A stretch of DNA of 62,559 bases from a virus, in IMG/VR virus record IMGVR_UViG_3300021090_000020, positions 1 to 62,559 of that record; one strand, written 5' to 3'. Position numbers and translations under genes: made by a program. The notes under the pieces are model-generated. The model saw only the letters and a program-made list of their open reading frames with translations, had not been told where the DNA came from and did no database searches. Below, piece after piece: positions 224 through 54,556 of the stretch (its first letter is position 1; every line of letters begins with the position of its first letter).

Positions 224-2218
224 GTGAAATTCGGCCCGGTCCCACCCAAGCTTCTGCCGCGTCAGGACTCGGCTAAGGTCCTGCTATTGGCGGAGCGCTG
301 GCAGCGCGCCTCCTGGGCGCACGCGCGATGGGCCGAACGAGCCAAGCTTGCGGTCGATTTTTTCGAAGGCCGGCAGTGGACCGAGACGCAGCTCGCCGAG
401 ATGAAGCGGCAAAGTCGTCCGGCCTTCAAGTTCAACATGATTGCGCCATTGGTGCGGTTGATCCTCGGCTATCACCGCGGCAACAAGACCGACATCACCT
501 TCAAGCCCGGCCAGGACATGCGCTCGTCCGAGCAATTGGCCGAGGCGCTCACCCGCATCGAGAAGGTGAACGCCAACGGATCGAAGTTGGAGTTTGTCGA
601 TACTGAAGTGTTCATGGACGGCCTGATTGCCTCGCGCGGGTTCTATGACACGCGGCTGGATTTCGAGCACAACGACCTCGGCGAAATAATGGATCGGGCG
701 GTCGATCCATTCACCGTCAAGATCGACCCGGACGCCGACACCTACGACCTCAACGACAGCGCGTCGTTCCTGCAAACCGACAAGTGGGTGTCGATAGACG
801 AGATCGAATGCGCCTACGGCAGAACGGTGGCGAGCCTGGTACGGCCTTTCATGAGCGGGCAGACGCCATTGGCGCCGCTCTCAAGCCTGGTGCTTAACGA
901 CGACATCACGCCGGTGCGCTTGTTCGGCGAGCGCTCGGAATCGGACCGCATGTTTTGGGACGATTTCTACGGCATGATGGGCGACTTCGTCGATACCCGC
1001 CGCAAGACGATCAGAATGATCGAGACGCAATACAAGGTGGTCGAACCGAAGAACGTCATCATCGACCTGGAGACCGGCGACAAGAAGACCCTGCCAGACG
1101 AATGGGATCAGGAGCGCATCAAGAAGGCACTGCTCTATTGCGAGCAGATCGGCAATCCATGCGTGGTCGAAAACCGCATGGTCGAGCGCATCCACTGGAC
1201 GATCATGGCCGGCGACATGATCCTGTACGACGCGCCGTCGCTCTACGATCGCTACACGCTCACCGGATATTTCCCGTATTTCCGGCGCGGCATGACGCGC
1301 GGCATGGTCGACGACCTGATCGACCCGCAGATGGAGAAGAACAAGCGCCGCTCGGCCAATGTCGAGGCGGCGTCGAAGACAGCGAACGGCGGCTGGCAGT
1401 ACCACGCCGATTCGCTGGACCCTGTGCAGAAGGCTAAGCTGCTTAAGCACGGCTCGTCGCCCGGCTTTAACCTGGAATGGAAGGGTGAGGGCGGCGACAA
1501 GAAGCCCAACATCATCCAGGCCGCGCAGCCCGACATAAAGCAGGAGCGGTTGGAGAAGCAGGCCGACGACGACCTGCGCGCCATTTCCGGGGTGAACGAA
1601 AGCGCGCTCGGGCAATTGGATCGCGTGCAGTCCGGCCGGGCGATCGAGGCACGCCAGCGTCAAGCCGTGCTCTCGGTCCAGATGTACATGGACAATCTCA
1701 AGCGCTCGAAGATGCTGGTCGGGCAAAGCCACCTCGGCATTATCCAAAACCACTACACCGAGCCGCGCATCTACCGGATCATGGGCGAAAACGGCAAGTT
1801 CTCGCAGGTGATGCTCAACCAGGAGCAGGTCGATCCAGCCTCGGGCCTTAAGGCTATCCTCAACGATGTGACAGTCGGCAAATACGAAGTCGTTGTGGAC
1901 GACGCGCCGATCAGCGCGACCTTCTTGAGCGCGCAGTTCGAGGAGATGATGTCGCTGCTGGAAAAAATGGGGCCGGCGCTCGGGCAGAACATGCCGATGT
2001 TTGCCGACCTCATCATGGATTTGTCGTCGCTGCCGCGCAAAGACGAGTGGGTCGCACGCTTCAACGCGCTGGCCGGAGCCGCCGCACAGAACGCGCAACC
2101 GCCGGCCGGCGGCGGCGCAGGTGGGCCTGCCGGTCAACCGGCGCCCCAACCAGGACAGCAAGCCCCGCCGCAAGGCGGCAACGTCGTTGCTATGGTTCCA
2201 CAAGCAGCACAGGCCTGA
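224..2218 (+). CDS. Portal protein (P22 type)
   Basis: This 664-residue protein should form the dodecameric portal ring at the capsid vertex through which DNA is packaged and ejected. The N-terminal third reads as a P22-like portal: an early 'FFEGRQWT' segment, then 'PAFKFNMIAPLVRLILGYHRGN' type wording, and a 'VDPFTVKIDPDA' region. The last ~45 residues are an Ala/Gly/Pro/Gln-rich tail, a common disordered end in this family. The start is GTG 224, 3 nt after the previous stop, with a weak ribosome site. It lies downstream of terminase (through the circle junction) and upstream of scaffold and capsid, the normal head order. Confidence 0.85.
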   Translation: MKFGPVPPKLLPRQDSAKVLLLAERWQRASWAHARWAERAKLAVDFFEGRQWTETQLAEMKRQSRPAFKFNMIAPLVRLILGYHRGNKTDITFKPGQDMRSSEQLAEALTRIEKVNANGSKLEFVDTEVFMDGLIASRGFYDTRLDFEHNDLGEIMDRAVDPFTVKIDPDADTYDLNDSASFLQTDKWVSIDEIECAYGRTVASLVRPFMSGQTPLAPLSSLVLNDDITPVRLFGERSESDRMFWDDFYGMMGDFVDTRRKTIRMIETQYKVVEPKNVIIDLETGDKKTLPDEWDQERIKKALLYCEQIGNPCVVENRMVERIHWTIMAGDMILYDAPSLYDRYTLTGYFPYFRRGMTRGMVDDLIDPQMEKNKRRSANVEAASKTANGGWQYHADSLDPVQKAKLLKHGSSPGFNLEWKGEGGDKKPNIIQAAQPDIKQERLEKQADDDLRAISGVNESALGQLDRVQSGRAIEARQRQAVLSVQMYMDNLKRSKMLVGQSHLGIIQNHYTEPRIYRIMGENGKFSQVMLNQEQVDPASGLKAILNDVTVGKYEVVVDDAPISATFLSAQFEEMMSLLEKMGPALGQNMPMFADLIMDLSSLPRKDEWVARFNALAGAAAQNAQPPAGGGAGGPAGQPAPQPGQQAPPQGGNVVAMVPQAAQA

Positions 2219-19266: not shown

Positions 19267-19778
19267 TGGCTGGCCTCTCATTTAATGATCTTGTTCCGGG
19301 AAATATTGACCTCAACGCGCGCCCAGTCGTGCGCAATTCCGATGGCTCGATAAGTACCGTTTATTCCAAATCATTCAATTTTGATGGCGTCGAAACGCTG
19401 CTCCCGACAGTCAGCAATGACGGGCGCATATTGTCGGATCAGGAGGCCATTGATCTCTATCTCAAGACAGGACGGCACCTCGGGCAATTTGCCTCACCTG
19501 ATGCCGCTAACGCCTTTGCGCAGCAACTCCACAAGGATCAGGAAAAACTATACGTTCCGCAGCCGGCGCAGCCGACCACGCGCTTGCAGCAGATGAGTGC
19601 GTTCGGCCGGACTGGCGACATTAATCAAGGTGAGCAGGCACAGCCGCCGCCCGGCAGCTTCAACACCAATCTCCCGCCCCCAGGCGATCACGCGCTGGTA
19701 CAGCCGCGCGAACTCCCGCTCGATCGCAACACCATTTATCCGAACGATATCGCTCCGCGCGGCCTTGAGGATATCTAA
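19266..19778 (+). CDS. Ejection-operon protein with LSFxDLVP start motif
   Basis: 170 residues. It starts 'MAGLSFNDLVPG', a motif shared with the next gene. Residues ~14-98 form a compact domain ('ARPVVRNSDGSIST', 'LLPTVSNDGRILSDQEAID', 'LYLKTGRHLGQF', 'AQQLHKDQEKLY') that I recall from many phage internal and polyvalent proteins, without an assigned function. The rest is Pro/Gln-rich. It is joined to both neighbours by TAATG overlaps, so all three are probably made and packaged together. Confidence 0.6.
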   Translation: MAGLSFNDLVPGNIDLNARPVVRNSDGSISTVYSKSFNFDGVETLLPTVSNDGRILSDQEAIDLYLKTGRHLGQFASPDAANAFAQQLHKDQEKLYVPQPAQPTTRLQQMSAFGRTGDINQGEQAQPPPGSFNTNLPPPGDHALVQPRELPLDRNTIYPNDIAPRGLEDI

Positions 19779-22700
19779 TGGCCGCGCTCTCATTCGATGA
19801 CCTGATCCCGGACAGTTCGGGCGCAAATCCCGCCGCTTCCGGTTTGGGAGCGGCGCCGCTTTCGTTTGATGATCTGGTGCCCGCTTCGTCGATCGCGGCG
19901 CAGCCCGACGACAGCAGCTTGACAGATTACACGCGCGAGGGTGTGACCGCGTTTGCGGAGCAGGGCAAGAACCTGTTTGCCGGGGCGCTCAAAGGCTACG
20001 GCGCCGCAGCACCAGCCATTGCAGAGCGCTCGATCTCAGCACTCGACAACATCAACGCGCCGCTGGCTGACGACAGCCCGGAGGCGCGCGCGGCTTACCG
20101 CGTTCGCCGCGGCGTGCAGCATCCTTCCGACGATGTGATCGCGCAACGGCGGGCTGCGCTTCAGGGGCGCGCCGATCTCCCGATTGCGGAACAACCACTT
20201 TATCGCGCCGGGCGTGCCGTCGAGGATTTCGGCAAGGAGGCGCTTGGCGCTTCTCCCGGATGGGAGAAAAGCTGGACGCGCGACATTATGGGCGGCCTCG
20301 GCTCGATGACAGCAGGCGTCGGGGTGTCGATGATCCCGGGTGCCGGTCCCGGTCTTGCCGCAACGATCTTCCTCGGCGCCGGCATGGGCGAGGCCGTCGA
20401 CAAGGCGATCAAGGAAGGCGCTACCGAGGAACAGGCGCGCCGAGCGGCAGAGTTAGGTTCCATCGCTGGCGCAACCGACATGATCGACGCGCTGTTGCCT
20501 GCGCTCGGCTCGACCGGCAAGGCATTGGGCTTTATCCGGCGCGTCGGCACACGGGCAATCTATGGATCACTCGCCGAAGGCGGGCAGGAGGGCTTGCAGC
20601 AGTTCATTCAGAACATGATCGCCAAGGGCGTCTATAAGCCCGACCATGACTTGATGGAGGACGTGCTGCGATCAGCCGCGATCGGTGCCATCGTCGGCGG
20701 TGTTACCTCGGGCGGATTTGCGGCTGTGCAGCGCCAGCAGCCAGTCGAAGTCGCGGGGCAGCCCATCGCGCAACCCGAGGACATCGCACCTCCCGGTGCC
20801 GTTCCCGCCGATATGGTCATGCCGGCAGCGGCGGAAGCGCCCGCGCCTGCAGCAGGGACCCCGGCTGCCCCCATTGAGAGCATTCCCACCGGCGCCATGC
20901 CAGCCGAAACCATGCTCCCGTCGGCGGGCCAGCCTTACACGGCGCAAATTCAGGCGCCGCAAGCGCCCCCACCACAGGATCCCGCCGGCCGGCACACCCT
21001 CCAGGCCATGCTGGACGACCCACGCACGGCCGAGGAGATGCGCGCCGACCTGGCGCGCGCCGAGAAAGCCGCCCAGGCCGCCGCCGACCGGATAGGAGCC
21101 GTAGCGCCGGCCGGTAGCCAGACCAGCGTCACCATTAACGGCCTAACCGCGCAGCCCGCGCCACCGTTCGGCCACGATGCTTCACGTGAAACACCCCCGC
21201 AGCCTGTCATCCGTGAGGGTACAGCGGCAATGTACGATCCGGCCGCCGTCGCCGTCGGCCCGGAGCAAACGGCGCAGCCCACGGCCGCGCCCGTGACGCC
21301 GGGAAGCGCTATTGCGGGCGCGGCGCCAACAACCGAGATCCCGCCACCTTCCATCGGCGATGGCACCCGCACAGCGCCGGTTGACGTCCAGACGTCATCC
21401 GATGTGGCCAAGGCCGCGGCGGCGGCCACTACCAACTACAGCCCGAAGCAGGGCGAGGCCAACAACCGCCAGCTCGGGCACGCCAAATGGAACGGCCTTG
21501 AGGCCTCGATCGAGGTTGCTGCAGGTGGTGTCCGGCGCGGCACCAAAAAGACCGGCGAGCCGACGCAGACCACATTCACCGCGCCTTATGGCTATTGGAA
21601 AAAAACCGTTGGCGCCGACAAAATGCCGGTCGATGCCTATTTCGGGCCGCACATCGGCGACCCGAACCTGCCGGCCTACGTGCTGGACGAGCTCGATTCC
21701 AAGACCGGCAAATTCCGCCAGATCAAGACGTTCGCGGGCTTCGCATCGCCGGAGGCCGCAACACAGGCCTATCTCGGCACCAGCACCAAAGGCCCGGAGA
21801 ATATCGGCGGCATCACCGCAATTCCGGCGGCTGAGTTTCCGGCCTGGGTGAGCGACGAGAAGAACACCACCAAGCGGCTGTCGGCGCCGCCGGCTGACAT
21901 AAAAGTCAACACGCCAAAACAGCGCCAGGGCAAGAAAGGCCCGCTGTCGCTCATCGAATTCATCGCGCAGCGCGGCGGCATCGACCCACGGGATCCTCTG
22001 ATCGGCGACGTGCGCATGATCCTCGGCACGCCCAACAGATATATGCGCGGTTACGGGATGCTGATCCGGCCCGGCGGAAAGTACCTCGACAATTTGCACG
22101 AAGCGGCCGTGGAAGCCGGCTACCTGCACGACGAGGCGCGAAACTCAGGCGGCGTAGCTCAATCCACCACCACCGACCTGCTGAACTTGCTCGATGGCGA
22201 ACTGCGCGGCCAGAAAGCCTATTCCGATAACGATCGCGATGAGGTCGCCAACCGCCAGGACATGAAGGACGCCAAGGCGCAGGCCGAACAGCTCGCACGC
22301 GCCCAGGACGAAGTCCGCGCCGTTGCCAAGCGCGATGGCTACAACGCCAGCGACGAGCAGGTGCGGCGCGCCGCCGAGGCCAGTTTGGTCAATGATGCTG
22401 ACCCAATCGACGCGCTTGTGGACATTCTTGAGCGCGACGCCATTGCGGATCGCGACGATCTGGCGGAAACTGTCAAAGCGCGAGGAGAGAAAGATGCTGC
22501 CACAGGAACGGATGCGGGTCGCGCAAGACCTGCGGCGACTGTCCAATCAGCCGGACCTGCCGATCAAGCGTCGGATGGAGGCGCGTCGGCACGCGTCGAA
22601 TCTGGTCAAGATCAACTCGGCCGAGGCGAAACGCGGACCGAAACTGCCGAAGCCACCCGCCGCCCCGAAGGCGTTCGCGGCACCGAAGCCGCCAGCACCA

Positions 22701-25700
22701 CCGAAGCCACCGGCACTGCCGAAGCTGTAGCGGCGGTAGAGCCGGATTCTTCCGGGAAAGAATTGCCAAAGAATGCACCAACAATAAATATTCCTCGAAA
22801 TATTCCTGAAGCAGCCAAGGCCCCGGAAACGGGGCCTTCTGATTCCGGGGCTGTGCAGGTCCAGGCTCCGGTCAAAGCCAAGGGCGTGGCGATTCCGGCG
22901 AAGGCCGAGCCTACAAAAGCGGCGGCCGGCGACGAGCCGAAGCTCGCCATGCGCCGCGATGAAGCGCCGGCAGAGAAGCAAGCAGCACCGGGCGTGCCCG
23001 ACTACGAGCTGCGCACGCCGTTCACGCCTGCGTTCCTCGATCACGCCAACGCGGTGCAACCGCTATTGCGCGCCGAACTCAACCGGCTCGGGCTCCATGA
23101 TATTGCGCTGAAACTGGCCGACCGAATTAACCTATGGGTGCAGGGCCGGCACTCAAGCGCCGATGGCGTCTATTGGAAGCGCACCGTCACGTTGGCGCTC
23201 GATGCCGACCATCAATTCCGCACCCTGCACCACGAGGCGCTGCACGCCTTGCGCGAACTCGGGCTGTTCACCGACGGCGGCGATATTGCCAACCCGCGTG
23301 ATAACGAATGGGGCCTACTTGAGCGCATGTCGAAGGCCAAGTGGCGGGAGCAATTCGAGATCGACAGGTTCTATCCAGAGGTTTCGGAAGAAACCAAGAA
23401 TGAGGAAGGCATCGCCTACGCCTATGCCGCATGGGCCGACGGCAAGTTGAAGGTCGACGGCCGCTTTGTGCGCCTGTTCAAGCGCATCAAGGCGTTCCTC
23501 GAAGCGCTCGGCAATGCGCTGCGGGGTAACGGGTTCAAGACGGTCGAGAGCATCTTTAGCGACATCAAGAGCGGCGAAGTCGGCAAGCGCTTCGGTGCGG
23601 AGCGCGCGGGCGAGCCGATGGCGGCGGCGCGCAAGGGTGACAGCGACCTGTTCAAGACCGAAGTGGTGCAGACCCCCGACGGCCCGCGCGAGCAGGGCGT
23701 CATTCCAGGCGCCGAGAAGATCAGCGAAAAGGAGCGCTTGCAGCGCCAGGCCAACAAGCCGCTCAAGCCGGGCAAGGCGCAGAAAGATGTTGACGGCCTG
23801 CCGCTGTTCAACGACGAGCCAAGCCCCGACCTGCCGATGTTTGCGCTCAAGCGTGAGCCGGAGACGGCCCAGGAACTCATGCGCGTCAGCCAGGGATTTA
23901 TTGCCCGTGGTCAATTCATCGACCGCGCCATGCGCGTGCCGTTCGATTATGCCGGCGGTCTCACGAAAGACGGCCAGTGGAAGCCGGGACTTTACCTTTG
24001 GGACAAGCATCCGACCGCGATGGCCGGCGCGCTCATCGGTGCCCGCATTGGCGCTGCGATTACAAACCCCATCGGCGCGGCAGCCGGACATATTGCTGGC
24101 AAGCTGGTAGCCGGCAAGGTCGGCGCCGGCGTTGGCGAAACCGTCGCGGCCTTTACCGGCGGTCTGCCGGGCGCGGCCGTTGGTGCTGTCGTTGGTGGTG
24201 CTGGCGGCAGGCTCATCATGGCGAAGTTTTCGCCCGCCGGCCGCTTTGCTTTCATGAACCCCATCCTCGAAACCGCGCGCAGCAACTTGATCGACCGCTA
24301 CAATCTTCGCAACCTGCCGGAGTACGTTACGCGCGAACGCGACCGTGCATTGGACGAGCGCGCCAAGCTGATGCAGGCAAACGAAATACTCAAGGCGATG
24401 AACCACGCCGGTGTCGGTTTGCAAGAGGCGCGCGTGCTGCACGCCATCATTACCGAGGGTGCGGTTGCCAGCGCCGATATGGCGGCATTGGCCGAACCGA
24501 TCCAGGCCGCGGTCGATCAATGGGGACAGGAGGCGGTGGCGTATGGACTTGTGAGCGCCGAAAGTTTCGAGCGCAATCGCGGAACCTACATGCACCGCGT
24601 TTATCTCAAAGACGAAGCCGAACAGCACGGCTTGCGGCGCATGGTCAACGGCATCATGGGGTCACGCAGGAAGAAGATCATCGGCGACCAATACAAGGGT
24701 CGCGGCATATTCAACGAGATCGAGTTGCCCCGCCTGATGCGCGACGTACCGGATTGGCATGAGGGCGCGCGCGGCAAGCCGGAAAACGGCGAGAAGTTCG
24801 TGCGTCTCGATGAAATGGCAACACAGCAGCAGCTTGCGCTCGACGAAAAAAAGACCCCCGAAAAGGTGCTGCGCACGGTTTATCTGCCGGTCGGCCGGCA
24901 GATCCCCGACCGCTATTCCGCCTTCCGCAATCAAGGCACATGGGAGGTGCGCGGCAGCAAGAATGGCAAGATCGTGATCTGGCGCGACTTCACCAAGGAA
25001 GAACGCACCAAACTGGGCGAAATTCTCGACGCCCGCTACACTTTCGCCAAGACCGCGATGCTTACCGCTCATGATCTCTCGGTCGGCAAGTTTTACAAGG
25101 ATATATCGCAGAACGAGGATTGGACCAGCAGCACGCCGCCCGATGGCAGAATCATCGACGCCGCCGAATGGCAGGCCGGGCGCCGAGCTTACAAGCCGAA
25201 AGATCACGATTGGGTGCGCGTCCCTGAGACGGAGATTGGCAGCACCGGCGGCAAGAAGCGATGGGGCGCGCTCGCTGGCAAATGGGTACGCGAGGAAATC
25301 TGGCGCGATTTGAACGAGTTGGAAATCCTGTCGCGGCCCAGCACATGGCGCGCGATCATGACAGGCTGGAAAAAAAACAAAACCGCGCGCTCACCCAACG
25401 TCCACATGAACAACGTGGTGTCGAATTTTACGCTGATGGATTTGTTGGACGTGCGGTTCCAAGACTTGATTGACGGTATCCGGTCCTTCGCCAAAGGGGA
25501 CCGGCATTACGAGGAAGCCTTCAAGCACGGCGCGTTCGGCGCCGACATGATTACGCAGGAAATTCGCGACCAAGTCTTGAAGCCGATCCTTGATGAAATC
25601 GCCCGCAGCAATTCCTTGCCTGCCGGCCGCCTCGGCCTGATGGGGCAGGCGTCTAAGTTTACGGAGCTGTTGTGGTCCAAGTTGCAAAAACTAGATCAGA

Positions 25701-26692
25701 AGATGGTCGACCTCTACCGGGTAGAGGACGAGATATTCCGCATGGCGACCTATCTGCGCCGAATTCAATTGGGTGACACCCCCAAGCAGGCGGCCGATCA
25801 TGCCCGCGAGCAGTTTATCGACTACGACATTCGCGCGCCCGGAATTCGCGCCCTGCGCAACACGGCGGTGCCATTTATTTCCTATACCTATCGCGCTGGC
25901 CCGCTGGTGGCAAAAGCCGTTGCAACGCGGCCGTGGAAACTGGCGAAGTACGCGCTCCTTGGCTATGTGCTCAATGCGCTGGCCTACGCCGTCACCGGCG
26001 GCGACGAAGACAAGGAACGGCGCAGCTTGCGCGAGCAGGAGCAAGGCAACACATGGGTTGGCACCGAGCGCATGACGCGGATGCCGTGGAACTCTCAGAA
26101 AGAAGGCTTCCCCGTGTTCCTCGATATTCGCCGGTTCATGCCGGCGGGAGATATCGTCGACTTCAATCAGGGGCAGACGGCGCTGCCAATCGTTCCAGCC
26201 TGGCTGATGATCGGCGGGCCGATGGTGCTCGGCGCGGAATTCTTCTTCAACAAGCAGATGTTCACCGGCCGGGAAATCACCAACGACAAGTCCGACGACT
26301 GGTGGGACAAGACAACAAAGACCGCCAATTGGGCGTGGAAGTCGTGGATGCCGAACGCGCCGTGGGTGCCCAGCTCGTACTCCAACGAAAAGATATGGGA
26401 TGCCGCCTGGGGTGCGCGTGAAAAATATACCGACCGGCCACTTAGTTTGCCGCAGGCGCTTCTATCGTCGGTCGGCATCAAGATCAAACCCGAGGACATG
26501 GATCGCAATTTTGCGCGCAAGGGCCGCGAATTCAAGAAGGTATTCGAGGCACTAAAAACCGAAGAACGAGATTTCAATCTGGACCACGAGGCTGGCACGC
26601 TCTCCGACAGCGCATTTGATCGGAAGACAAAGAACGTGGACAGGAAGCGACAGAACGCCATCGAAAAGATGACCGAGACGTTCAAGGACTGA
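19778..26692 (+). CDS. Giant polyvalent virion protein (2304 aa)
   Basis: The N-terminus carries two 'LSFDDL(I/V)P' motifs (~4-10, ~28-34), then a Gly/Ala-rich hydrophobic helical part (~165-320). A Pro/Ala linker (~320-560) follows. An inorganic-pyrophosphatase-like domain lies around 560-690 ('FTAPYGYWKK', 'MPVDAYFGPH'), and a helical domain at ~710-860. After another linker comes a zinc-metallopeptidase-like domain with HEALH at ~1152-1156. A glycine-rich hydrophobic segment (~1418-1482) and a long C-terminal region (to 2304) resemble polyvalent-protein-associated domain 38. Such proteins are packaged and ejected; they may form the conduit or disarm the host. A near-perfect parS sequence lies inside its first linker. 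Confidence 0.75.
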   Translation: MAALSFDDLIPDSSGANPAASGLGAAPLSFDDLVPASSIAAQPDDSSLTDYTREGVTAFAEQGKNLFAGALKGYGAAAPAIAERSISALDNINAPLADDSPEARAAYRVRRGVQHPSDDVIAQRRAALQGRADLPIAEQPLYRAGRAVEDFGKEALGASPGWEKSWTRDIMGGLGSMTAGVGVSMIPGAGPGLAATIFLGAGMGEAVDKAIKEGATEEQARRAAELGSIAGATDMIDALLPALGSTGKALGFIRRVGTRAIYGSLAEGGQEGLQQFIQNMIAKGVYKPDHDLMEDVLRSAAIGAIVGGVTSGGFAAVQRQQPVEVAGQPIAQPEDIAPPGAVPADMVMPAAAEAPAPAAGTPAAPIESIPTGAMPAETMLPSAGQPYTAQIQAPQAPPPQDPAGRHTLQAMLDDPRTAEEMRADLARAEKAAQAAADRIGAVAPAGSQTSVTINGLTAQPAPPFGHDASRETPPQPVIREGTAAMYDPAAVAVGPEQTAQPTAAPVTPGSAIAGAAPTTEIPPPSIGDGTRTAPVDVQTSSDVAKAAAAATTNYSPKQGEANNRQLGHAKWNGLEASIEVAAGGVRRGTKKTGEPTQTTFTAPYGYWKKTVGADKMPVDAYFGPHIGDPNLPAYVLDELDSKTGKFRQIKTFAGFASPEAATQAYLGTSTKGPENIGGITAIPAAEFPAWVSDEKNTTKRLSAPPADIKVNTPKQRQGKKGPLSLIEFIAQRGGIDPRDPLIGDVRMILGTPNRYMRGYGMLIRPGGKYLDNLHEAAVEAGYLHDEARNSGGVAQSTTTDLLNLLDGELRGQKAYSDNDRDEVANRQDMKDAKAQAEQLARAQDEVRAVAKRDGYNASDEQVRRAAEASLVNDADPIDALVDILERDAIADRDDLAETVKARGEKDAATGTDAGRARPAATVQSAGPADQASDGGASARVESGQDQLGRGETRTETAEATRRPEGVRGTEAASTTEATGTAEAVAAVEPDSSGKELPKNAPTINIPRNIPEAAKAPETGPSDSGAVQVQAPVKAKGVAIPAKAEPTKAAAGDEPKLAMRRDEAPAEKQAAPGVPDYELRTPFTPAFLDHANAVQPLLRAELNRLGLHDIALKLADRINLWVQGRHSSADGVYWKRTVTLALDADHQFRTLHHEALHALRELGLFTDGGDIANPRDNEWGLLERMSKAKWREQFEIDRFYPEVSEETKNEEGIAYAYAAWADGKLKVDGRFVRLFKRIKAFLEALGNALRGNGFKTVESIFSDIKSGEVGKRFGAERAGEPMAAARKGDSDLFKTEVVQTPDGPREQGVIPGAEKISEKERLQRQANKPLKPGKAQKDVDGLPLFNDEPSPDLPMFALKREPETAQELMRVSQGFIARGQFIDRAMRVPFDYAGGLTKDGQWKPGLYLWDKHPTAMAGALIGARIGAAITNPIGAAAGHIAGKLVAGKVGAGVGETVAAFTGGLPGAAVGAVVGGAGGRLIMAKFSPAGRFAFMNPILETARSNLIDRYNLRNLPEYVTRERDRALDERAKLMQANEILKAMNHAGVGLQEARVLHAIITEGAVASADMAALAEPIQAAVDQWGQEAVAYGLVSAESFERNRGTYMHRVYLKDEAEQHGLRRMVNGIMGSRRKKIIGDQYKGRGIFNEIELPRLMRDVPDWHEGARGKPENGEKFVRLDEMATQQQLALDEKKTPEKVLRTVYLPVGRQIPDRYSAFRNQGTWEVRGSKNGKIVIWRDFTKEERTKLGEILDARYTFAKTAMLTAHDLSVGKFYKDISQNEDWTSSTPPDGRIIDAAEWQAGRRAYKPKDHDWVRVPETEIGSTGGKKRWGALAGKWVREEIWRDLNELEILSRPSTWRAIMTGWKKNKTARSPNVHMNNVVSNFTLMDLLDVRFQDLIDGIRSFAKGDRHYEEAFKHGAFGADMITQEIRDQVLKPILDEIARSNSLPAGRLGLMGQASKFTELLWSKLQKLDQKMVDLYRVEDEIFRMATYLRRIQLGDTPKQAADHAREQFIDYDIRAPGIRALRNTAVPFISYTYRAGPLVAKAVATRPWKLAKYALLGYVLNALAYAVTGGDEDKERRSLREQEQGNTWVGTERMTRMPWNSQKEGFPVFLDIRRFMPAGDIVDFNQGQTALPIVPAWLMIGGPMVLGAEFFFNKQMFTGREITNDKSDDWWDKTTKTANWAWKSWMPNAPWVPSSYSNEKIWDAAWGAREKYTDRPLSLPQALLSSVGIKIKPEDMDRNFARKGREFKKVFEALKTEERDFNLDHEAGTLSDSAFDRKTKNVDRKRQNAIEKMTETFKD
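21178..21193. promoter_or_regulatory. parS-like site (15/16)
   Basis: TGCTTCACGTGAAACA differs at one base from the bacterial consensus TGTTTCACGTGAAACA bound by ParB. It lies in the low-complexity linker of the giant protein gene. Confidence 0.6.
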
Positions 26693-30049: not shown

Positions 30050-30871
30050 TTAACGATCCTGTGGTCCCGGCTCGCAGACTCGAACTGCGGTATCCGCGTC
30101 CACAGCGCGGCGCCCTACCCTTGAGTTAACCCGGGATTGCCAGTGCGTCGTATGCGCCTTTACCATAAAGGCGTTGATCCGAGCGCGGTCTGTTTTCCAA
30201 TCGCAATCCTTCAATAGCTCACGAAGCTGCATTTCGGCGGTGTCGATCATCCGCAGCGTTTCATCTTTCGTATATTTTCCCGTCCTGATGCCCCGCAGGA
30301 TGCTGAGGTTGGGTTCCGCGACCGGCAGTGTAATCGTGCGGCGCACGAGCATTTCGATACCCTCAAAAGCAAGCCGCATAGCGTGCATGGCAAACTTGGT
30401 ATCGAAGCCGTATTTGGCGACAAGCTCAGGCCGGTTGACCGTCTGATTACGCTGGCCGGTCATCTTCATCCTTTGAGCGACAAGATAGCCAAGGAAGCGA
30501 TCGCCGGATTCGCGGCTGATAAAAGCCTCGCGCATTTCGACTAGACCCGCGCCTAGTTCTGTCTTGGCCTCATGCGTCGGAAGCCATAGCAGGATCACCA
30601 CAGACGGATTGCCCTGCTCGGCAAGGCGGCAGAACTTGCGCAGGCTATACATTGTCAGGTCTAGGTCGCCCGCCTCACTACGGACGCCCTCTGGTTTGTC
30701 GCGATAGATGTAATGGTCACACGATGATAAACCGCAAACGTATTCCGGCGGTTCGATAAAGATGCCCATTTCGTCACGGTCATCCTGCCCGTCAACGGCG
30801 GTGCCATGTGCGGTTGACCCCACGACGCCGCGTAGGATTTCATTGCCGAGTGCTATTTCACGCGAGTTCAT
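30050..30871 (-). CDS. Predicted nucleotidyltransferase (DNA polymerase beta superfamily, RlaP/YcgL-like)
   Basis: 273 residues, ATG 30871 with AGGGA upstream. The N-terminus has the nucleotidyltransferase signature GST (18-20) followed by 'DDRDEMGIF' (D31 and D33, metal ligands). 'DLDLTMYSLRKFCRLAEQGNPSVVILLW' and 'KFAMHAMRLAFEGIEML' match the helical part of the family that phages often carry and that has been proposed to act in RNA repair. The last ~28 codons run through a tRNA-His gene on the same strand, so the true protein end or the transcript end is unusual. Confidence 0.75.
   Translation of the reverse strand: MNSREIALGNEILRGVVGSTAHGTAVDGQDDRDEMGIFIEPPEYVCGLSSCDHYIYRDKPEGVRSEAGDLDLTMYSLRKFCRLAEQGNPSVVILLWLPTHEAKTELGAGLVEMREAFISRESGDRFLGYLVAQRMKMTGQRNQTVNRPELVAKYGFDTKFAMHAMRLAFEGIEMLVRRTITLPVAEPNLSILRGIRTGKYTKDETLRMIDTAEMQLRELLKDCDWKTDRARINAFMVKAHTTHWQSRVNSRVGRRAVDADTAVRVCEPGPQDR
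30062..30135 (-). tRNA. tRNA-His (anticodon GUG), A73, no G-1
   Basis: A full cloverleaf on the minus strand: acceptor 30129-30135/30066-30072, anticodon arm 30094-30110 with loop CTGTGGA, T arm 30073-30089 (perfect), CCA encoded at 30062-30064. The discriminator is A73 and position -1 is T, not G: the recoded alphaproteobacterial tRNA-His form. There is a G6-G67 mismatch and an A10-C25 mismatch, so it may be slightly decayed. It overlaps the 3' end of the nucleotidyltransferase frame. Confidence 0.8.
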
Positions 30872-33180: not shown

Positions 33181-33271
33181 GGCGGGGTGGCAGAGTGGTC
33201 GATTGCAGCGGTCTTAAAAACCGTAGAACGGGCTAGCCCCCGTTCCGTGGGTTCAAACCCCACCCCCGCCG
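33181..33271 (+). tRNA. tRNA with anticodon UAA on a serine-type body
   Basis: Class II cloverleaf: acceptor 33181-33187/33264-33270 (7 perfect pairs), D arm with 3-bp stem (33190-33206), anticodon loop CTTAAAA (anticodon UAA, codon UUA, Leu), long variable stem AACGGG/CCCGTT, T arm 33247-33263. The discriminator is G73 and the D arm (GCAGAGTGGTCGATTGC) is of tRNA-Ser(UGA) type. Leucine tRNAs normally have A73. By anticodon it is tRNA-Leu; by body it looks like tRNA-Ser with one changed anticodon base. Confidence 0.8.
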
Positions 33272-33355
33272 CACTTTCCGGCAAGGCTGGACCGAACCAA
33301 CGAAATCATTGTAGCACACCCCGATTCGGGGTCAAAACGCCCTATTGCGGCTTAG

Positions 33356-37553: not shown

Positions 37554-38678
37554 TCACGCGCCTTTCTGCTCGGCCTCGGCCTGCGCCGGCGCGCCGCCGC
37601 CGTACATCGCCGCGGTGGCCTCCTCGGGCGTCAGGTACTTCAGGTAAATCTCGGTGGTGACCACGCTCTCGTGGCCGAGCTGCTTCTGCAGGTCGCGGAT
37701 CGTCCCCTCCCGGTTCCTGAGATAGTCCACGGCGTAGCGATGGCGCAGGTGGTGGAAGGCCATGCGCCGGAAATCCGGGTGATCGTGCCCGGCCTCCTCG
37801 GCGGCCTTCCTGGCGGCCTTCTCCTCGGCTTTGCCGGTCTTGTAGAAGCGACCGGCGACGTCGCGCAGCGGGCCGCCGTCCTCCTGCCAGAACAGCCATT
37901 TGCAACCGAGGCGGTGGGGCAGGCTGCGCAGGTAATCGTAGGCCGCGGTACTCAGGCTCACCACCCGCAGCTTGTTGCCCTTGCCGATGACGGTCAGTTC
38001 CTTGCGCACGCGATCGAGCCTGGCGACCTCGGCGGTGACCAGCTCGTCCTGCCGGCAGCCGGTCAACAGGGCCGCCCTGGCGATGGCGCCGATCGCCGGC
38101 ACGGCCCGCTTGAGCACGCGGTCGATGTGGGCGTGCTCGGGCAGCACGATAGGATCCCGCCGCTCCTTGAGGCGGGACTTCTTGCGGCCACCTGGGCGCA
38201 ACCAGGTCCCGATCGGATCGTCCTCGATCTCGGCAAAGGCGAGCACGCTGGAGAGCGCCGTCAGGTCGCGCTTGATGGTGGCGATCGACACGCCGGCCGC
38301 GCGCCTGCCCGCGACGATCTCACCGATCTTGGCCTTGTCGATCTCGTCCATGAACAGGTCGAGCAGGAACGGCTCGAGCTGCGTGAGCGACGCGGCGTAG
38401 CGTTCTGCGGTCTTCGGCCCTACGGCGTCGAGAATATGCCGCTCGGCCCAGGATGCCACCACATCGGCATATTTGATCCTGACGCCGTTGTGGAAGGCAA
38501 CAGCCTTCATCCGCCCGATATCCTCCTGGACGATCTGTGCCGCAAGTTCGACATCGCTCGTGCGTAGCGACCAGCGCCGGAGCTTGCCTTTGATGCGGAT
38601 GCGACCGTGAAGGGTGCCACCCCGCCACTCACAGTTCTTCGGGGCTTTGCGTTTGCGGCGGCTTTTCTCTGCTGGCAT
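37554..38678 (-). CDS. int: Tyrosine-type integrase
   Basis: 374 residues from ATG 38678, with GGAGAGG upstream. An N-terminal arm-binding-like region (1-60) and core-binding domain (~65-150, SAM-like) precede the catalytic domain with R209 (TGCRQDE), a lysine near 235, H309-x-x-R312 (HHLR), H336 (LGH) and nucleophile Y345 (EIYLKY). It catalyses insertion into and, with Xis, excision from the host chromosome. attP lies just downstream. Confidence 0.9.
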   Translation of the reverse strand: MPAEKSRRKRKAPKNCEWRGGTLHGRIRIKGKLRRWSLRTSDVELAAQIVQEDIGRMKAVAFHNGVRIKYADVVASWAERHILDAVGPKTAERYAASLTQLEPFLLDLFMDEIDKAKIGEIVAGRRAAGVSIATIKRDLTALSSVLAFAEIEDDPIGTWLRPGGRKKSRLKERRDPIVLPEHAHIDRVLKRAVPAIGAIARAALLTGCRQDELVTAEVARLDRVRKELTVIGKGNKLRVVSLSTAAYDYLRSLPHRLGCKWLFWQEDGGPLRDVAGRFYKTGKAEEKAARKAAEEAGHDHPDFRRMAFHHLRHRYAVDYLRNREGTIRDLQKQLGHESVVTTEIYLKYLTPEEATAAMYGGGAPAQAEAEQKGA

Positions 38679-38875
38679 TGTTGCCTCTCCAAATCGTCGA
38701 GCCACGCACGCAACTTCACTTCGTCATAGGTCCACAGGCCGTCGATCTTGATCGCGCCGGGGATTTCCCCGCGCTCGGACTTCTGCTGCAGCCGGCGCTC
38801 TTTCAGGCCAGTGATTCCGCGTGCACAAGCACTGTCGATCCTCTCCGGCTGGATTGGAAGCGCCCGGGCGGTCAT
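38507..38875 (-). CDS. Xis-like / MerR-type small DNA-binding protein
   Basis: 122 codons from ATG 38875. Residues 1-75 resemble excisionase/AlpA folds ('GITGLKERRLQQKSERGEIPGAIKIDGLWTYDEVKLRAWLDD'). The remaining ~50 residues are Ser/Arg/Ala-rich and overlap the 5' end of int by 172 nt, so translation of int may be coupled to this frame or the tail may be dispensable. Likely controls the direction of integration. Confidence 0.6.
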   Translation of the reverse strand: MTARALPIQPERIDSACARGITGLKERRLQQKSERGEIPGAIKIDGLWTYDEVKLRAWLDDLERQQCQQRKAAANAKPRRTVSGGVAPFTVASASKASSGAGRYARAMSNLRHRSSRRISGG

Positions 38876-52702: not shown

Positions 52703-53065
52703 ATGCTGACCAGACAAAACCTCGACGCCACCTTCGCCGTCCTGGTCGCGAAAGCCGTTGCCGGCGAGCGCTGCCCGCAACGCGGCCGGATCAACACCGA
52801 TGGCTTGAATTCGGCATGGGTGGTGGAACTTGCGCACGCCGGCCGCATCCGTATTGAGATTTCTGGCCAAAACTATCGCACTGTCGAAATCCTCAAAGGC
52901 CCACACAAGGGAAAAACAACTGCGCCCGATCCGCACCGCAGTAGGCCCTGGAAGATCATCGACCAAAACGGCACGCGCACACTGAGCGGCAGCGTGAGGT
53001 CTCCACCGAGAAAATTGCCGTCGGCGCCGCGGCTGCTGCCCTACGCCGGCAAGGAGAAATTATGA
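52703..53065 (+). CDS. Hypothetical early protein
   Basis: 120 residues, ATG 52703, basic C-terminus. No motif. Stop overlaps the DUF1376 gene start (ATGA). Confidence 0.6.
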   Translation: MLTRQNLDATFAVLVAKAVAGERCPQRGRINTDGLNSAWVVELAHAGRIRIEISGQNYRTVEILKGPHKGKTTAPDPHRSRPWKIIDQNGTRTLSGSVRSPPRKLPSAPRLLPYAGKEKL

Positions 53066-53988
53066 GTCGGCCTTGGATGCCACTTTACGTCGCGGACTAC
53101 CTTGGCGATACCCGCCATCTGACGGCGGCACAGCACGGTGCGTACCTGCTTTTGTTGATGCACTACTGGCAACACGGAGAACTGCCGGACGACGATCAGC
53201 AGCTTGCTCGCATAGCCAGCATGACTGACGATGAGTGGAGAGTAGCAAGACCTGTTGTTCGGGCGTTTTTTCAGGACGGGTGGTATAATAAACGGCTTGT
53301 TCGAGAGTTAGCCGAATCCGCTGCGGCTTACGAGAGACGCAGCGCGGCCGGTAAAAAACGTCACATAGCCAAACCCCCTCCACCCCAGCAATGTTCCAGC
53401 ATTGACCTAGCATTACATCAGCAATCACTACCACAAGAACAAGAAGTAGATGGTGGTGGTGGCGCGCGCGCGCGCGACCCCGTTGTTTCACGTGAAACCA
53501 GCCTGATCTCATCGGAGGCCATGGTGATAGCGGACGATCTCGCGGTGATCGCGGGTCACGATCCGCGATTTTTGCCGCCGGGTTTTGCCGGCGCGGCAAT
53601 GCGAGTTCAAGCTTGGCTCAATTACGGATGGACGCGCGAGGTGATGGTCGCCGCGGCGCGCGGAGCCATGTCGCGCAAGGCGGATGGTCCGCCGCAGACC
53701 GTGAACTATTTCGAAAAACCGATCAGCCGGATGGTCGCGCAGCAATCGGCGCCGATCGCAACTGTGGAGGAAAATCATGTCGCCCAATCTTCCGGCGTTC
53801 AGAGTGGAGCGGGCCGTCGAAACAATCAAAGCACTATCCTTGCCGGATTTACTGCAGCGCTCAGTGAGTGCTCTGGGTCACGCCTCGGTCCAGGGCCCGC
53901 CAAAAATCTGGAAGGGGATAGAATACCGGCAATCGCACATGGTCACAACGATCCCGCGCCAGTTCGCGCCGTCGCCGGAAGATCGTGA
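53062..53988 (+). CDS. DUF1376 replication-associated protein
   Basis: 308 residues. Residues 1-95 form DUF1376 ('WMPLYVADYLGDTRHLTAAQHGAYLLLLMHYW', 'LARIASMTDDEW', 'FFQDGW'), a winged-helix-type domain typical of phage replication initiators. The middle (~100-140) is coded by the iteron-like repeats, CG tract and parS-like site. The region after residue ~145 is another folded segment. The last 212 nt overlap the next gene. Analogous to lambda O, whose gene contains the origin. Confidence 0.75.
   Translation: MSRPWMPLYVADYLGDTRHLTAAQHGAYLLLLMHYWQHGELPDDDQQLARIASMTDDEWRVARPVVRAFFQDGWYNKRLVRELAESAAAYERRSAAGKKRHIAKPPPPQQCSSIDLALHQQSLPQEQEVDGGGGARARDPVVSRETSLISSEAMVIADDLAVIAGHDPRFLPPGFAGAAMRVQAWLNYGWTREVMVAAARGAMSRKADGPPQTVNYFEKPISRMVAQQSAPIATVEENHVAQSSGVQSGAGRRNNQSTILAGFTAALSECSGSRLGPGPAKNLEGDRIPAIAHGHNDPAPVRAVAGRS
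53387..53430. other. Iteron-like repeats, candidate replication origin
   Basis: Four 11-bp phased repeats starting at 53387, 53398, 53409 and 53420, each beginning AGCA(A/T)T, inside the DUF1376 gene. Then an A/C-rich easily melted stretch and an alternating CG tract (53461-53476). Confidence 0.5.
53484..53499. promoter_or_regulatory. parS-like site (15/16)
   Basis: TGTTTCACGTGAAACC matches the bacterial parS consensus at all but the last base. It lies 54 bp downstream of the iteron-like repeats. Confidence 0.7.
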
Positions 53989-54556
53989 GGCCATCGCGAA
54001 GCGGATAGCGGAGTTACGGCGTTGCGTCGCGCATTGCGACATCGATCAGTCCTGCGCATTGGTGGCGCAACTGCAACTGCAACTCGCGTCGAAAACCTTA
54101 ACCGACGAAGGCGCTAAGGCGCTGGCGAAGGGCTTTATCGCGGTGGTGGAAGACATACCTACTTTCGCCGTGGCCGAGGCCTGCCGGCGCTGGTTACGCG
54201 CCGAAACCGGGAAGATCGGCGATGGCAAAGACGCCTATGTCCCGCGCTTCGTATTCGCGCCGTCGCCGCCAGAACTTGCGATGGTGGCGCGGCCCATCGT
54301 GTTCGTGGCGACGGTGCAGATCAGCCAACTCAAGCGCTTGCTTGAAGCGAAGATTGTCGAGGATTTTCCGGAACGGCCGGAACTGGCGCACCTTGCTGGT
54401 AAAGCCGTTTCCGGCCTTGCCGCCAGCATGAAGGCGCCGATGACGGGTTACGCCGTCGAAGCTGATCTGCCTGCCGACGGCCAACACGCTTTGCGGGTCC
54501 AGGCCGACCTGACCGCACGCAAGGAACGTAATGCGATGCGCGAGCAGACAGCATGA
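53777..54556 (+). CDS. Hypothetical replication-region protein
   Basis: 259 residues from ATG 53777, chosen for its excellent GGAGGAAA site although it overlaps DUF1376 by 212 nt; ATG 53939 is the alternative. The core from ~60 ('FAPSPEDREAIAKRIAELRRCV', 'ALAKGFIAVVEDIPTFAVAEACRRWLR', 'YVPRFVFAPSPPELAMVARP') looks conserved and follows DUF1376 genes elsewhere as I recall. Might be the helicase loader, but no AAA+ motif is visible. Confidence 0.6.
   Translation: MSPNLPAFRVERAVETIKALSLPDLLQRSVSALGHASVQGPPKIWKGIEYRQSHMVTTIPRQFAPSPEDREAIAKRIAELRRCVAHCDIDQSCALVAQLQLQLASKTLTDEGAKALAKGFIAVVEDIPTFAVAEACRRWLRAETGKIGDGKDAYVPRFVFAPSPPELAMVARPIVFVATVQISQLKRLLEAKIVEDFPERPELAHLAGKAVSGLAASMKAPMTGYAVEADLPADGQHALRVQADLTARKERNAMREQTA

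What the first reader, a model, noticed from the sequence alone, without database searches (positions are those of the whole stretch)
53484..53499. Two parS-like sites in a phage without a visible ParB
TGTTTCACGTGAAACC (53484) and TGCTTCACGTGAAACA (21178) each match the 16-bp bacterial parS at 15 positions. By chance, even one such match is very unlikely in ~62 kb. Both lie in low-complexity coding linkers, so the DNA site rather than the protein may be selected. The phage may recruit host ParB for segregation of its genome, placement of the prophage, or to disturb host segregation.
Basis: partly seen in the sequence, partly recalled or inferred. Interest (0 to 1): 0.8.

Follow-up and report, generated by a model that had tools for sequence, protein, structure and literature searches.

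The report
Host centromere sites in a phage
This bacterial virus carries one perfect and one near-perfect copy of the short DNA signal (parS) that bacteria use to pull their chromosomes apart, although it has no gene for the protein that reads it; because such copies are far commoner in phages than chance allows and appear to match the host, the virus probably borrows the host's own segregation protein, ParB.

Summary
TGTTTCACGTGAAACC (53484) contains the complete 14-bp parS core. TGCTTCACGTGAAACA (21178) has one mismatch. Nothing else in the window has up to 3 mismatches, and the chance of two such sites is about 7e-8. No ParB domain was found; the phage has an integrase.

Both sites use rare codons (joint synonymous probability 2.8e-4 and 3.6e-5). 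Site 1 sits at the end of a predicted disordered linker in the replication initiator. Site 2 lies in a 2304-aa polyvalent virion-type protein.

The sites are not conserved in structural relatives or in aligned initiator homologues. But parS as a class is heavily enriched in phages. The exact 16-mer occurs in 286 phage records, against 0 for two scrambled palindromes. The Pseudomonas-type parS is most frequent in Pseudomonas phages. Site 2's exact 16-mer occurs in 112 viral loci, against 4 for a matched scramble. In DUF1376-initiator phages parS-like sites cluster near the initiator.

Most likely both are host-ParB loading sites, site 1 the strong one. The downstream benefit (genome positioning and segregation, or ParB titration) is inferred. 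Phage phi29 and Spo0J, recalled from memory, is the precedent.

The parts
53484..53499 (.). Site 1: TGTTTCACGTGAAACC, perfect 14-bp parS core (53485-53498); in frame it encodes V-S-R-E-T (residues 142-146 of the initiator)
   Evidence: the same 16-mer occurs in the putative parS cluster of a Falsiroseomonas genome
21178..21193 (.). Site 2: TGCTTCACGTGAAACA, one mismatch inside the core; in frame it encodes A-S-R-E-T (residue 468 onward)
   Evidence: this 16-mer occurs in 112 IMG/VR loci (89 flank clusters) against 4 for a matched scrambled control
53062..53988 (+). Replication initiator / primosomal protein: N-terminal DUF1376 (4-84), disordered linker, C-terminal part like phrog_3926 replication initiation protein (139-248)
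19778..26692 (+). 2304-aa large polyvalent-type protein with an InPase domain (PF18823, residues 557-691); site 2 lies in its Pro/Ala-rich N-terminal third
37554..38705 (-). Tyrosine integrase (PF00589): temperate lifestyle
224..2218 (+). P22-type portal protein used to find relatives and to suggest the host (nearest cellular hits are alphaproteobacteria)

Best explanation
The two sequences are parS sites for the host's chromosomal ParB, carried by a temperate phage of an alphaproteobacterium (host inferred) that has no ParB of its own. Site 53484 is a full-strength site placed in the disordered linker of the replication-initiator gene, where five free amino acids (VSRET) can be written as a palindrome without harming the protein. 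Site 21178 is a weaker, accessory site in the linker of a very large virion-type protein. Inferred mechanism: after injection or excision, host ParB-CTP dimers load at 53484 and slide over the flanking replication module. Through ParA, SMC and, in alphaproteobacteria, polar anchors, they treat the phage replicon like an origin region, keeping copies on the nucleoid or pole, compacted and separated. Shown: sequence identity, improbability by chance, rare-codon encoding, enrichment of parS and of site 2's exact 16-mer in viral genomes, host-related variants, clustering near DUF1376 initiators. Inferred: ParB binding, spreading, and the benefit.
For: Perfect 14-bp core, with P(two sites) about 7e-8. 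Codon choice improbable given the peptide, 2.8e-4 and 3.6e-5. Linker predicted disordered. Exact parS16 in 286 isolate and metagenome phage records (412 sites), 0 for two scrambled palindromes. The Pseudomonas parS form TGTTCCACGTGGAACA has Pseudomonas as its top genus, and that form is the published P. aeruginosa / P. putida site (PMC7022226). In 50 phage records with related DUF1376 initiators (2.14 Mb) there are 3 exact and 4 one-mismatch sites, with 0.008 and 0.34 expected and 0 in the control; all lie within 7 kb of the initiator (P about 1e-3), one directly after its stop codon. phi29-like phages carry the same VSRET-in-linker parS in endolysin gp15; phi29 itself has 4 one-mismatch sites, and its gp15 copy reads VSRGT with the palindrome retained in the other B. 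subtilis form.
Against: The sites are absent from 19 of 20 portal-related contigs (one has a 1-mismatch site), from 9 named DUF1376 phage stretches examined and from 15 alphaproteobacterial genomes with DUF1376 near that gene. The initiator linker in 11 homologues has no VSRET. Site 2 has a core mismatch not seen among the host parS sites that were listed. The two sites are 32 kb apart, not clustered as chromosomal parS are. Ten Klebsiella phage records carry the Pseudomonas-type site although Enterobacteriaceae lack ParB, so not every phage parS can work through host chromosomal ParB. No binding data.
Confidence: 0.62

Rival explanations
1. ParB decoy: replicated phage genomes titrate host ParB away from the chromosome, blocking segregation and division (ParB is essential in Caulobacter and Hyphomonas), to the benefit of lytic growth.
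For: parS also occurs in phages that need no segregation: Listeria P100-type, phi29-like and small ssDNA viruses. ParB is essential in several alphaproteobacteria (PMC7022226).
Against: One strong and one weak site per 62 kb is a poor sponge until copy number is high. The placement near the initiator is not explained by titration. The window phage is temperate.
Confidence: 0.15
2. A local regulatory role: ParB (or a phage repressor with similar specificity) loaded at the site silences or insulates neighbouring phage genes, like ParB/KorB spreading on plasmids.
For: ParB-family clamps can silence genes on plasmids (KorB, PMC11790492, abstract). Sites cluster near early/replication genes in DUF1376 phages. 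In Microbacterium phages the site lies in HTH regulator genes.
Against: The window sites are inside genes and not at a detected promoter. Site 2 lies far off in a virion-type gene. The host-related variants point to host ParB rather than a phage repressor.
Confidence: 0.12
3. Chance, or protein-level constraint only: VSRET/ASRET happen to be written this way and no protein binds.
For: No conservation in relatives at either position (31, 91). Linkers drift freely.
Against: P about 7e-8 for the pair. Rare codons. Enrichment of the same 16-mers across viral genomes. VSRET is not conserved in homologues, so protein constraint cannot explain it.
Confidence: 0.1

Closest known systems
Bacillus phage phi29 and B. 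subtilis Spo0J (ParB); from memory, Meijer et al. 2005, EMBO J, paper not held
   Same: Phage without its own ParB carrying host-type parS inside genes: four one-mismatch sites. The B103 relatives carry an exact parS in the gp15 linker (VSRET), the same coding solution as in the window. Spo0J is reported to take the infecting genome into spores.
   Different: Virulent, 19 kb, protein-primed, spore-forming host. The window is a 62 kb integrase-bearing phage of a probable alphaproteobacterium, with its strong site in the replication initiator.
SGI1 hijacking of the IncC plasmid parABS (PMC10954446; abstract only, seen)
   Same: A mobile element exploits another replicon's partition system in trans.
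   Different: Uses a plasmid system, not the host chromosome's; an island, not a phage.
Phages with their own parABS (P1; extrachromosomal mycobacteriophages, PMC7157519)
   Same: parS-type sites on a phage genome.
   Different: These encode their own ParA/ParB; the window has no PF02195 domain.
Chromosomal parS sites of alphaproteobacteria
   Same: Identical 14-bp core; the same 16-mer occurs in a Falsiroseomonas parS-like cluster.
   Different: Not clustered next to oriC and parAB; lies within phage genes.

Membership tests
chromosomal-type parS (ParB-binding site) | 14-bp palindromic core GTTTCACGTGAAAC (or an accepted variant) | tested here: met
   Site 53484 exact; site 21178 has one core mismatch
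chromosomal-type parS (ParB-binding site) | Bound by ParB, which loads and spreads with CTP | not testable with these tools
   Needs EMSA / bio-layer interferometry / ChIP-seq
chromosomal-type parS (ParB-binding site) | Located by a replication origin, usually as a cluster | tested here: inconclusive
   Site 1 lies inside the initiator gene and DUF1376 phages show clustering near that gene, but the phage origin is unmapped (no iterons found) and the two sites are 32 kb apart
chromosomal-type parS (ParB-binding site) | Host lineage uses this site form | tested here: met
   50 of 58 alphaproteobacterial genomes carry sites with up to 1 mismatch; the host itself is inferred from portal and DUF1376 relatives
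phage-encoded parABS | ParB gene on the phage | tested here: not met
   PF02195 gives no match in the record; the record may be incomplete
host-parS-carrying phages (phi29 type) | Host-form parS above chance and no own ParB | tested here: met
   class enrichment
host-parS-carrying phages (phi29 type) | Host ParB shown to act on the phage genome | not tested
   No experimental data; phi29 precedent recalled from memory

The most novel reading that the evidence does not exclude
Carrying the host's parS in coding linkers is a widespread, convergent phage strategy with host-matched variants across bacterial phyla: phages without ParB plug their genomes into the host ParB-SMC machinery, often next to their replication initiator. 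The window is one temperate alphaproteobacterial case.
Probability: 0.5. Interest if true: 0.8.

Novelty: new variant of a known kind. Interest (0 to 1): 0.64.

Why it matters
If true, host ParB, normally seen as a housekeeping segregation protein, is a common phage host factor. ParB-parS foci, SMC loading and cell-cycle checkpoints would then be affected directly by infection, and a 14-bp site would mark which phages exploit it. The prediction can be tested with single synonymous mutants in ordinary laboratory phage-host pairs. It may also offer a sequence-based clue to the host of uncultured phages (the Pseudomonas form being commonest in Pseudomonas phages).

Tried and rejected
Own phage ParB: none found. 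Conservation in portal relatives: absent. A general rule that DUF1376 genes carry parS in the linker: rejected (0 of 9 named phage stretches; 0 near 15 alphaproteobacterial DUF1376 genomes; 0 of 11 aligned homologues; and no DUF1376 hit in the 120 exact-core loci); only proximity is supported. Iterons or an origin around 53484: none found. Homology of the polyvalent protein P0002 to other parS-bearing giant ORFs: none significant. A literature report of host-type parS across phages: ten full-text searches of the held open-access library found none, which does not exclude subscription papers or preprints. One genome search failed.

Full report
OBSERVATION. Both sequences are present as stated. 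TGTTTCACGTGAAACC (53484-53499) and TGCTTCACGTGAAACA (21178-21193) are the only places in the window with up to three mismatches to TGTTTCACGTGAAACA. In 14-bp terms the first is perfect and the second has one mismatch. A first-order Markov model of the window expects 3.6e-4 sites with up to one mismatch; P(at least 2) = 6.6e-8. Even after allowing for a reader who knows a thousand motifs, this is not chance. The 14-bp unit is the one used in the ParB-parS crystal structure (PMC7383237), and M. smegmatis parS is listed as exactly GTTTCACGTGAAAC (PMC7022226).

ANATOMY. Site 1 is in frame in ORF 53062-53988, a replication initiator/primosomal protein with DUF1376 at residues 4-84 and a C-terminal stretch (139-248) like replication initiation protein phrog_3926. 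It encodes VSRET, residues 142-146. An AlphaFold model from a 12-row alignment gives residues 111-146 below pLDDT 50, between a helical N-terminal domain and a helix starting at 144. Overall confidence is modest (mean pLDDT 56.5), so this supports a disordered linker but does not prove it. Site 2 encodes ASRET from residue 468 of a 2304-aa ORF with an InPase domain at 557-691 (PF18823), a polyvalent-type protein. Given the peptides, the codons are rare in this 61% GC phage: joint synonymous probability 2.8e-4 for site 1 and 3.6e-5 for site 2, and 300 synonymous recodings of 29.7 kb of coding sequence, including both genes, gave no site. The window has a tyrosine integrase, a P22-type portal and other head genes, and no ParB N-domain. 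The nearest cellular portal hits are mainly alphaproteobacteria (Rhodospirillaceae MAG 53%, Falsiroseomonas 45%, Roseospira 36-37%), and the best DUF1376 hits in named phages include Bradyrhizobium and Rhizobium phages. The host is therefore probably an alphaproteobacterium. In 58 sampled alphaproteobacterial genomes such sites are few (typically 2-3) and mostly clustered, and the Falsiroseomonas cluster contains the exact 16-mer of site 1.

CONSERVATION. The sites are not conserved in close structural relatives. Of 20 portal-related viral contigs, only one has a site with up to one mismatch (TTTTCACGTGAAAC), and none has a DUF1376 match over the family cut-off. In 11 initiator homologues the linker is variable and lacks VSRET. 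Named DUF1376 phages of Rhizobium, Bradyrhizobium, Komagataeibacter, Acetobacter, Azospirillum, Pseudomonas and Leptolyngbya have no site with up to two mismatches in the stretches examined. However, in 50 viral records with related DUF1376 initiators (2.14 Mb) there are three exact cores and four one-mismatch cores, with 0.008 and 0.34 expected and none for the reversed control. All seven lie within 7 kb of the initiator gene (P = 8.5e-4 for within 8 kb under uniform placement), the three exact ones within 2.5 kb (P = 0.004), and in L229 a perfect 16-bp parS directly follows the DUF1376 stop codon.

THE CLASS. A 30-letter BLAST query holding parS16 between Ns reports exact 16-mers. The phage collection (50,697 records, 2.3 Gb; about 0.5 expected) gave 286 records and 824 places, i.e. 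412 sites counted on both strands. They come from Listeria, Microbacterium, Arthrobacter, Gordonia, Bacillus, Lactobacillus, Ruegeria, small ssDNA viruses and others. Two palindromes of the same composition gave none. The variant TGTTCCACGTGGAACA, listed for P. aeruginosa and P. putida (PMC7022226), gave 58 records with Pseudomonas first. That is what host matching predicts; ten Klebsiella records are an exception, since Enterobacteriaceae lack chromosomal par genes. The exact 16-mer of site 2 gave 112 stretches in 89 flank clusters against 4 for a matched scramble. IMG/VR contains some bacterial contamination (clusters of five sites in L030 and L075 look chromosomal), so these ratios are less clean than those from named phages. 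The in-frame VSRET-in-linker solution recurs: terminase N-termini, a head protease, portal proteins, polyvalent proteins, and the gp15 endolysin of phi29-like phages. There B103, Goe1 and BSP11 keep the exact 16-mer although B103 differs from the other two by 12-13% upstream. phi29 itself has four TGTTTCACGTGGAACA sites, one at the corresponding gp15 linker position where the protein reads VSRGT instead of VSRET: the palindrome stays within the B. subtilis parS consensus while the amino acid changes.

MECHANISM. The best-supported reading is that host ParB is recruited in trans. Site 1 would load ParB-CTP clamps that spread over the replication module. From established ParB biology, such a region recruits SMC and is moved by ParA, and in several alphaproteobacteria it is anchored at the pole. 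The likely benefit is positioning, compaction and separation of phage genome copies before integration or after excision. Titration of ParB and local gene silencing are rivals that sequence cannot exclude. The occurrence in virulent and very small phages shows that plasmid-like inheritance cannot be the only use.

KNOWN OR NEW. From memory, phi29 is the precedent: Spo0J is reported to take part in trapping the infecting genome in spores (Meijer et al. 2005, not held, so not checked). No paper in the held library reports host-form parS as a widespread phage feature. I therefore call the window a new variant of a known kind, and the survey around it the more interesting result.

Noticed in passing
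L548 (PQ006149.1, bajarodino virus 6), 635, 662, 1414, 2857, 4096, 5628: A 5.9-kb inovirus genome carries six exact 16-bp parS sites, mostly at gene boundaries. A strong candidate for episomal maintenance through host ParB.
   Followed up: partly
L546 (phi29) 10445, 15903, 17243, 18760; L547 (B103) 10120, 15611: phi29 has four TGTTTCACGTGGAACA sites. The gp15 linker copy reads VSRGT in phi29 and VSRET (exact parS) in B103, a coding change that keeps the palindrome within the B. subtilis parS consensus.
   Followed up: yes
Klebsiella phages RaK2, phiKp_21, vB_KpnM_W12-3 and others: Ten Klebsiella phage records carry the Pseudomonas-type parS although Enterobacteriaceae lack chromosomal ParB; unexplained.
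   Followed up: no
L069 (1450-5037) and L092 (4200-6869): Two giant phage proteins only about 35% identical over 114 residues both have an exact parS core at what looks like the same linker position (VSRET...PLPPSLPPM), suggesting DNA-level conservation.
   Followed up: partly
L072, 6705 and 6765: A 30% GC viral contig has two exact parS 16-mers 60 bp apart inside a repeated protein motif (NVSRETSFNFSSIGTNTT).
   Followed up: no
window 53777-54556 (+): A 259-aa ORF in another frame overlaps the last 212 bases of the DUF1376 ORF and has no family match; possible frameshift or overlapping gene at the end of the initiator.
   Followed up: no
window 30062-30135 (-) and 33181-33272 (+): Phage-borne tRNA-His (gtg) and tRNA-Leu (taa) genes.
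   Followed up: no
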